This document shows, piece by piece, positions 32,162-50,251 of a DNA stretch of 64,000 nt. Each line of letters opens with the position of its first letter. Within the stretch, counting starts at the first letter, position 1. The notes under the pieces are model-generated. The model did not search any database, was not told where the DNA came from, and worked only from the letters and a program-made list of their open reading frames with translations. The position numbers and the translations under genes are program-made. This DNA is from Bacteroidota bacterium (GTDB lineage Bacteria; Bacteroidota; Bacteroidia; NS11-12g; UBA9320): assembly GCA_016124755.1 (NCBI GenBank), contig WGNA01000004.1, positions 100,826-164,825 on the forward strand. The letters are read 5' to 3'.

Positions 32162-32283
32162 TGGATGCCAATTCTTCATTAAACTCCTTTGTTCCGTTCG
32201 AAGAGCTCACTTCATTATCAAAGCGGCGGAACCGAAAAGCCATTTAAGAGTAGGAATTGAATTCTAATTATTTATTAAAAAAG

Positions 32284-38160: not shown

Positions 38161-38329
38161 CTGACGAATGCCCTCATGATAAATTGGAGAATTACTGACG
38201 AATGCCTTTTTTAATCTGGTTTAACCAATTTCTTTTCTGTACAGCATTGTCAGCATAAATTGGGGAATTACTGACGAATGCCTTAATAAATGAAGTTTTA
38301 CAACAGGTAATAAGGTTCCGCATTGTCAG
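38161..38329. repeat. Hairpin-repeat locus 1 (three left arms, two full units)
   Basis: Left arms CTGACGAATGCC at 38161, 38195 and 38271; right arms GCATTGTCAG at 38244-38253 and 38320-38329. The first left arm lacks a right partner. Units are separated by AAATTGGRGAATTA. It follows a run of GGAATTAA octamers (38111-38140). Confidence 0.75.
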
Positions 38330-47858: not shown

Positions 47859-47917
47859 CTGACGAAAGCCAAGAATATTTAGGATAAACTACAAGTGATA
47901 ACGTTCGGCTTTGTCAG
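47859..47917. repeat. Hairpin-repeat unit, AAAGCC variant
   Basis: Left arm CTGACGAAAGCC (47859-47870), right arm GGCTTTGTCAG (47907-47917). The variant bases pair with each other (A-T in place of T-A). The loop contains ATATTTAGGATAAACTACAA. Confidence 0.8.
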
Positions 47918-47957
47918 CATAAATGGGGAATTGGTGAATTGGGAAATTGGGAAATTA

Positions 47958-48015
47958 CTGACGAATGCCAAGATGATTGGGTTGAACCAATTACTTTACT
48001 GTATGGCATTGTCAG
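47958..48015. repeat. Hairpin-repeat unit, AATGCC variant
   Basis: Left arm CTGACGAATGCC (47958-47969), right arm GGCATTGTCAG (48005-48015). The loop has an inner inverted repeat TTGGGTTGAACCAA. Confidence 0.8.
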
Positions 48016-48034
48016 CATAAATGGGGAATTCGTA

Positions 48035-48090
48035 AATTGGAGAATTGGAGAATTGGAGAATTGGAGAATTGGAGAATTGGAGAATTGGGG
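48035..48090. repeat. Tandem octamer array, 6 x AATTGGAG
   Basis: Six perfect AATTGGAG copies, then AATTGGGG, lying between hairpin units. Single copies of this octamer flank most other units (38183, 47832, 50069 regions). Confidence 0.85.
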
Positions 48091-48156
48091 AATTGCTGAC
48101 GTAAGCAAGCTAAACTATAGATTCAATTGAAATTGTCGCGATGCTCTATCAGTATA

Positions 48157-48215
48157 CTGACGAAAGCCAAAAATATTTAAGGAAAACTACAAGTGATAAC
48201 GTTCGGCTTTGTCAG
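48157..48215. repeat. Hairpin-repeat unit, second AAAGCC variant
   Basis: Left arm CTGACGAAAGCC (48157-48168), right arm GGCTTTGTCAG (48205-48215). The loop is almost identical to that of 47859-47917, so these two are recent copies. A degenerate unit (CTGACGTAAGC at 48096) lies between. Confidence 0.8.
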
Positions 48216-49856: not shown

Positions 49857-50251
49857 AAACATCAGTAAGCAAGGTGGAAGATTCTCCAAACATACTTCGT
49901 GGTTTAATTCAAAAATCACGGTACAATTAAATTGATATGAGACCGGGTTAACTGGAATGCAGGGCGATTAATAATTGGATTTTTGGGGTAAGAGAGGAGA
50001 GAATTGCTGATGAATGGCTTCTTGATTGGGTTGAACCAATTACTTTGGTGTAGGGTATTGTTGGGATAAATTGGGGAATTCGTGAATTACTGACGAATGC
50101 CTTTTAATCTGGTTTAACCAATTTCTTTTCTGTACGGCATTGTCAGCATAAATTGGGGAATAATGATGAATGCTGGTTTGCTATCAGTGTAAGAGGGAAT
50201 GTGGGTTATAATATTCAAGCGCTGAATAAAGAATTTTGTTTTAGAGTTGGA
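49857..50251. other. Intergenic region with hairpin-repeat locus 3
   Basis: Holds one degenerate hairpin unit (CTGATGAATGGC near 50007 with TATTGTTGG downstream), one complete unit at 50090-50146, and a decayed copy near 50163. No gene seen. Confidence 0.6.
50090..50146. repeat. Hairpin-repeat unit at locus 3
   Basis: Left arm CTGACGAATGCC (50090-50101), right arm GGCATTGTCAG (50136-50146). The loop, with inner TGGTTTAACCA, is nearly identical to that of the unit at 38195-38253. Confidence 0.8.

What the first reader, a model, noticed from the sequence alone, without database searches (positions are those of the whole stretch)
47859..48215. Dispersed hairpin family whose arms change together
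Six complete units occur in three intergenic gaps (38195-38253, 38271-38329, 47859-47917, 47958-48015, 48157-48215, 50090-50146), plus degraded ones. Arms are CTGACGAATGCC / GGCATTGTCAG or CTGACGAAAGCC / GGCTTTGTCAG: where the left arm changes T to A, the right arm changes A to T. Paired change across copies is what selection on a folded RNA or single-stranded DNA would give. Loops are 32-66 nt and fall into related types, some with an inner inverted repeat (TTGGGTTGAACCAA, TGGTTTAACCA). Units are framed by AATTGGRG octamers. No gene in the window explains them. They could be a REP/MITE family moved by an enzyme elsewhere, or a structured RNA or protein site.
Basis: seen in the sequence. Interest (0 to 1): 0.65.

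Follow-up and report, generated by a model that had tools for sequence, protein, structure and literature searches.

The report
Species-specific dispersed bulged-hairpin repeat family
This bacterium carries at least 130 copies of a short DNA hairpin found in no other genome searched; its stem is kept by paired mutations while its loop drifts, and the copies sit mostly just after genes, so it looks like a small REP-like repeat whose moving enzyme or RNA role is still unknown.

Summary
The genome holds at least 130 copies at about 54 loci. Each is 54-60 nt: left arm CTGAC-G-AAnnnn, a 31-37 nt loop that drifts to about 45% identity, and right arm nnnnTT-GTCAG. The seven outer pairs and the unpaired G are almost invariant. 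Three inner pairs covary: T-A 70, A-T 32 and C-G 15 at the first, G-C 100 and T-A 15 at the next. The arm switches recur independently on a tree of the loops. Neighbouring units are always head to tail (73 of 73). They start just after the stop codon of a same-strand gene far more often than expected (21 against 2 within 60 bp). Units also occur as present/absent modules in otherwise alike contexts. Nothing comparable was found in 57 relatives, 394 other genomes of the phylum or 84,980 species genomes. Best reading: a species-restricted, REP-like, non-autonomous hairpin element recognised as a folded single strand by an unidentified enzyme. A sense-strand role in the mRNA 3' end is the main rival. 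Membership in GTAG-REPs, CGTC-REPs, attC sites or a MITE with a resident parent was tested and not met. No mobilising enzyme could be assigned.

The parts
38161..38172 (+). lone left arm (truncated unit)
   Evidence: exact arm CTGACGAATGCC, no partner arm
38195..38253 (+). unit, T-A type, innermost pair broken (C/A)
   Evidence: covariance model 54.2 bits
38254..38270 (+). 17-nt linker CATAAATTGGGGAATTA, the commonest linker in the genome
   Evidence: linker lengths
38271..38329 (+). unit, T-A type, innermost pair broken (C/C)
   Evidence: covariance model 54.4 bits
47820..47858 (+). octamer-phased AATTGGRG tract left of the first unit
47859..47917 (+). unit, A-T type, all pairs intact
   Evidence: 59.6 bits; exact pattern
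47958..48015 (+). unit, T-A type, loop with inner GGTTGAACC palindrome
   Evidence: 57.9 bits
48022..48094 (+). octamer array (AATTGGAG)n
48096..48152 (+). decayed unit CTGACGTAAGCA...TGCTCTATCAG
   Evidence: read; arm; end by eye
48157..48215 (+). unit, A-T type
   Evidence: 60.8 bits
50007..50064 (+). decayed unit CTGATGAATGGC...GGTATTGTTGG
50090..50146 (+). unit, T-A type
   Evidence: 58.3 bits

Best explanation
A species-restricted family of small non-autonomous REP-like elements. The unit is a hairpin with a fixed foot (CTGAC-G-AA paired to TT-GTCAG, one G always unpaired), an inner stem kept only by pairing, and a free loop of about 34 nt. The inferred mechanism: an enzyme or single-strand process recognises the folded strand by its foot and bulged G and copies or inserts it in one orientation, mostly at or just beyond the 3' ends of genes. 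Only units with intact stems propagate, which gives the paired changes. Arrays then grow and shrink by recombination across the octamer linkers. Shown: structure, covariation, copy number, fixed relative orientation, position after stop codons, present/absent modules, restriction to this genome. Inferred: mobility by an enzyme, and folded single-stranded DNA as the form recognised.
For: Covariation at three inner pairs (mutual information 1.01, 0.42 and 0.155; 2000 shuffles each, p 0.001 or less). Left-arm switches on the loop tree occur in 8 supported independent pairs; the right arm follows in about 6 and practically never goes the other way. Pairing is within the unit: where neighbours differ in arm type, 27 of 32 units match at the variable pair within themselves, against 3 of 16 neighbour-to-neighbour pairings. 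Arms average 90% identity, loops 46%. The bulged G is kept in 112 of 114. 73 same-strand and 0 opposite-strand neighbours. Present/absent comparisons L062, L071/L072, L091/L092 and L060/L073 show the unit as a discrete module; in L062 the left edge falls exactly before CTGACG. No family in relatives or elsewhere. G-T and A-C stem deviations are equally common (23 vs 21), giving no sign that one RNA strand is the selected one.
Against: No mobilising enzyme found near any unit apart from one integron-type integrase that has its own canonical sites. No clean target-site duplication: in two comparisons (L091/L092, L071/L072) the overlap is octamer sequence and could equally come from deletion between direct repeats, and in the other two the unit replaces some host bases. 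No second strain was available to show recent movement. The 3'-end, same-strand bias also fits an RNA role.
Confidence: 0.52

Rival explanations
1. A sense-strand RNA element of mRNA 3' ends: transcribed with the upstream gene, the hairpin blocks 3' exonucleases or affects translation termination, and is kept for that effect.
For: Within 60 bp of the cluster's 5' side the gene is same-strand and ending in 21 clusters, against 2 opposite (p 7e-5); 36 of 50 overall (p 0.003); between convergent genes the unit is nearer the same-strand gene in 13 of 15 (p 0.007). 13 of 51 clusters start within 15 nt of a stop codon, 4 have the stop codon inside the left arm. Units fold as RNA with mean -13.5 kcal/mol and the outer stem forms in 114 of 126.
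Against: Upstream genes are unrelated housekeeping genes; 14 of 50 clusters are not behind a same-strand gene; up to 8 units in tandem; no excess of wobble pairs on the sense strand; no Rfam match over the units in the window.
Confidence: 0.22
2. Mutational by-product: template switching between the arms corrects one from the other, and arrays grow by slippage; no selection or enzyme.
For: Quasi-palindrome correction gives paired changes without selection (general knowledge); octamer arrays and tandem units are typical slippage products.
Against: Correction would remove the bulged G, yet it is kept in 112 of 114; the outer seven pairs hardly vary; closely alike loops sit at many unlinked loci.
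Confidence: 0.1
3. A protein-binding site acting in double-stranded DNA (nucleoid or chromosome-organising site), the inverted arms being two half-sites.
For: Arm spacing is nearly fixed (98 of 114 loops are 34-36 nt) and the sequence between is free.
Against: The arms are not true inverted repeats: one carries an extra G in 112 of 114 copies, and inner positions change freely provided they pair, which a double-strand half-site reader would not require.
Confidence: 0.08
4. attC-like recombination sites of the integron-type tyrosine recombinase at G000:C18:140520-141587, which lies 106 bp beyond a unit cluster.
For: Folded site with an unpaired base, free loop, head-to-tail arrays, often just after a stop codon; the recombinase gene is adjacent to units.
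Against: That integrase has its own GTTAGC site on its 3' side and a canonical attC (CGCTAAC...GTTA) at the end of a three-gene stretch; the CTGACG units lack RYYYAAC/GTTRRRY and separate no cassettes. Related integrases in other genomes are not accompanied by such units.
Confidence: 0.03

Closest known systems
REP elements (GTAG superfamily) with TnpA_REP/RAYT (PMC3733652, PMC6006769)
   Same: High-copy, intergenic, hairpin-forming, mostly downstream of coding regions, species-restricted, some with stem bulges, clustered with flanking DNA reiterated in tandem.
   Different: No GTAG/GTGG tag, no RAYT flanked by them, 54-60 nt with 31-37 nt loop instead of 20-40 bp with short loop, and only head-to-tail neighbours where known REPs are mainly head-to-head.
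CGTC-tagged REPs (PMC3733652)
   Same: Also lack a dedicated transposase and are reported from Bacteroidetes; in this genome one unit subfamily sits inside a CGTC-tagged palindrome.
   Different: Unit has no unpaired CGTC at one end; stem 11 bp with bulge and 34-nt loop instead of 8-9 bp stem and 4-5 nt loop.
Atypical structures beside subclass 2.6 TnpA_REP genes of Bacteroidetes (PMC6006769)
   Same: Hairpins without GTAG whose copies lie elsewhere in the genome; a gene with the 2.6-type motifs (NHLH, YLHNNP) is present here.
   Different: That gene is not flanked by these units.
Integron attC sites
   Same: Single-strand folded, unpaired extra base, conserved ends with variable centre, often directly after a stop codon.
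   Different: No RYYYAAC/GTTRRRY boxes, no cassettes; the resident integron uses canonical attC.
Short tandem degenerate repeats of bacteria (e.g. heptamer STRRs of cyanobacteria; from general knowledge)
   Same: The octamer linkers are phased degenerate short repeats, and relatives have their own 7-8-mers.
   Different: The linkers flank a structured hairpin.

Membership tests
GTAG REP / REPtron | GTAG or GTGG tetranucleotide at the hairpin foot | tested here: not met
   5' flank is mostly AATTA, otherwise TATA, ATTC or CCCA
GTAG REP / REPtron | a Y1 transposase gene flanked by copies | tested here: not met
   three Y1 genes, no arms within about 1.5 kb
GTAG REP / REPtron | high copy number in intergenic space, mostly downstream of genes | tested here: met
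   130 copies, 54 loci; same-strand gene upstream in 36 of 50 clusters
GTAG REP / REPtron | head-to-head or tail-to-tail dimers common, head-to-tail rare | tested here: not met
   73 same-strand, 0 opposite neighbours
CGTC REP | unpaired CGTC tag, 8-9 bp stem, 4-5 nt loop | tested here: not met
   11 bp plus bulge, 31-37 nt loop
MITE of a DNA transposon | identical terminal inverted repeats shared with a parent transposon | tested here: not met
   arms differ by the extra G; 85 exact left arms, all in unit clusters
MITE of a DNA transposon | target-site duplication | tested here: inconclusive
   overlaps of 11-22 bp are octamer sequence or absent
Integron attC | RYYYAAC...GTTRRRY boxes and cassette genes between sites | tested here: not met
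   boxes absent at the unit ends; linkers between adjacent units mostly 4-50 nt without genes
Known structured RNA | match to an Rfam family | tested here: not met
   no match over units in the window
Selected folded structure | covariation beyond shuffled and phylogenetic expectation | tested here: met

The most novel reading that the evidence does not exclude
A new kind of mobile or functional hairpin defined by a bulged-G foot, strictly one-directional and placed at stop codons, handled by an enzyme class not yet linked to REPs (or by a 3'-end RNA process), in a single species.
Probability: 0.25. Interest if true: 0.62.

Novelty: new variant of a known kind. Interest (0 to 1): 0.42.

Why it matters
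Small palindromic repeats without a resident transposase (the CGTC class, for example) are an open problem: it is not known what spreads them. This family gives a clean case. It has a fixed foot, an invariant bulge, an inner stem free to change if it pairs, a fixed orientation and a precise position after stop codons.

Tried and rejected
Chance: rejected. Resident Y1/RAYT mobilising the units: not supported. attC of the neighbouring integron: rejected after reading its own sites. Larger parent element with the same ends: none. Pairing between neighbouring units (17-nt loop) instead of within a unit: rejected. The same pattern in other genomes: single unrelated matches in seven species and a repeated stretch in five viral contigs. 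A foot-like hairpin in four genomes of another family of the phylum lies directly beyond genes that look like diversity-generating retroelement targets (one with a reverse transcriptase gene beside it) and is judged unrelated. Exact-string literature search found only unrelated papers. A scan for CGTC-REPs in the window found none with short loops. The review read mentions REPs only in mRNA decay.

Full report
Observation. Four fit the strict pattern exactly, with none expected in shuffled windows; the two at 38195 and 38271 each carry one broken pair. Searching the whole genome (4.05 Mb, 39 contigs) with the strict pattern gave 59 copies and none in the reversed control. A covariance model from 43 of them gave about 119 copies. 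A search on the outer foot alone found a second subfamily, CTGACGAACTCn...nGAGTTGTCAG. Together 130 copies at about 54 loci were collected.

Anatomy. Unit: CTGAC, an unpaired G, AA plus four variable bases, a loop, four variable bases plus TT, GTCAG. In 114 in-register copies the unpaired G is kept in 112; 70 copies have no broken pair and 35 have one; 98 loops are 34-36 nt long. Arms average 90% identity and same-length loops 46%. Around the main subfamily the flanks are AATTA on the left and CATAAATTGGGGAATT on the right, and the shortest tandem linker is CATA. The AATTGGRG octamers are part of an 8-nt-phased degenerate repeat found only in this genome and almost only beside the units. Relatives have other 7- and 8-mers. 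The second subfamily has other flanks, CGTCATCCCA...TGTGAAC...GTTCCGGGAT.

Covariation. Over 126 distinct copies the first inner pair is T-A 70, A-T 32, C-G 15 with 9 broken; the second is G-C 100, T-A 15; the fourth also covaries (mutual information 1.01, 0.42, 0.155; 2000 shuffles each, p 0.001 or less). On a tree of the loops alone, eight supported independent pairs differ in the left arm; the right arm changes with it in about six and practically never the other way. This tree has few columns and many weak forks, so the count is approximate. Template-switch correction between arms would also give paired changes, but it should remove the bulged G, which is kept.

Place in the genome. Genes were approximated by non-overlapping open reading frames of at least 115 codons, which is crude. 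In 51 clusters the gene on the unit's 5' side runs in the same direction in 36 of 50 (p 0.003). Within 60 bp it is 21 against 2 (p 7e-5). Between convergent genes, where promoters cannot matter, the unit is nearer the same-strand gene in 13 of 15 (p 0.007). Thirteen clusters start within 15 nt of a stop codon, and in four the stop codon TGA lies inside CTGACG. Upstream genes are unrelated: TypA, peptidyl-tRNA hydrolase, FloA, an aminoacyl-histidine dipeptidase, a dihydrolipoyl acyltransferase, RmuC. At the typA locus a member of the nearest genus (84% identical protein) has no unit. All 73 neighbouring pairs within 500 bp have the same orientation, unlike known REP families, in which head-to-tail dimers are reported absent or rare (PMC3733652). 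Unit orientation also agrees with local GC skew in 37 of 51 clusters, which may only reflect gene direction.

Gain and loss. Four present/absent comparisons lie in contexts that match well on both sides. In L062 the unit begins exactly at CTGACG and its context copy lacks it. L071 against L071/L072, L091 against L092, and L060 against L073 show the same. Two of these could be deletions between flanking octamer repeats and the other two involve replaced host bases, so they show discrete modules, not proven insertion.

Distribution. No copy in 57 relatives with the strict pattern, and only two marginal model matches (E 0.02-0.04) with the covariance model. Only single unrelated matches in 84,980 species genomes. 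In 395 genomes of the phylum only this one has the family. The phylum is inferred to be Bacteroidota from type IX secretion sorting domains in the window and nearby.

Search for an enzyme. The genome has three Y1 transposase genes. Two look like class 1 by their motifs and one, at C29:166698, has NHLH and YLHNNP as in subclass 2.6 of PMC6006769; this assignment is by motif only. None has unit arms beside it, and the third has its own GTCGTC...GACGAC palindrome, absent from the other fetched stretches of this genome. No larger element uses these arms as ends: all 85 exact left arms are in unit clusters. An integron-type tyrosine recombinase lies 106 bp beyond one cluster, but reading its 3' side showed a GTTAGC site, three genes and a canonical attC, and its relatives elsewhere in the order have a similar arrangement without such units. 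It is a neighbour, not the explanation.

RNA or DNA. If one RNA strand were selected, G-U pairs on that strand should be tolerated more than the A-C mismatches that are their mirror image. They are equally common (23 and 21). This is weak evidence for selection on DNA or for plain decay. The 3'-end sense bias is evidence for the RNA reading, and REPs have the same placement. I therefore keep the RNA reading at about one in five.

Verdict. A genuine, species-restricted hairpin family best described as a new variant of the REP kind, with an unidentified recogniser.

Noticed in passing
G000:C18:140520-141587 and to contig end 143869 (L072:11521-14870); relatives L161-L189, L192-L228: Integron-type tyrosine recombinase with an N-terminal extension of about 75 residues, followed on its 3' side by a GTTAGC site, genes (a Crp/Fnr-like regulator, an SRPBCC-like protein and a short-chain dehydrogenase, named by eye) and a canonical attC. 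Relatives occur in 37 of 108 genomes of the order, most of those read with a hairpin plus GTATAAACAAGTTA(G/T) directly 3' of the gene and a variable gene after it; contigs often break there. Looks like a family of integrons with the site downstream of the integrase.
   Followed up: partly
L060:3751-3840, L073:5946-5980, L091:3435, L092:3438 and 3946: The second unit subfamily sits inside a CGTC-tagged palindrome (CGTC ATCCCGGA...TCCGGGAT); an uninterrupted copy of that palindrome is in L073.
   Followed up: partly
G000:C29:166698 (L033:1264-1914): RAYT-like Y1 protein with subclass 2.6 motifs beside a GTCGTC...GACGAC palindrome.
   Followed up: partly
L242-L246 (other family of the phylum): Genes that look like diversity-generating retroelement targets (FGE-sulfatase/C-type lectin-like), one with a reverse transcriptase gene beside it, followed by a conserved hairpin CTGACGAAAAAGAGTTG...CAACTCTTTTGTCAG.
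   Followed up: partly
G002 and G005 intergenic DNA (L140-L155, L116): Relatives carry their own degenerate 7- and 8-mer tandem repeats, for example TTCAATCC and ATTAGCC in G002, and CTCGTCACT-like tracts after a stop codon in G005.
   Followed up: no
window 32223-32256: Rfam DUF805b cis-regulatory RNA just above its gathering score.
   Followed up: no
G000:C33:101-467 and C32:4-265: Tandem arrays of the second subfamily with a 104-bp period at contig ends, so the true copy number is probably higher.
   Followed up: no
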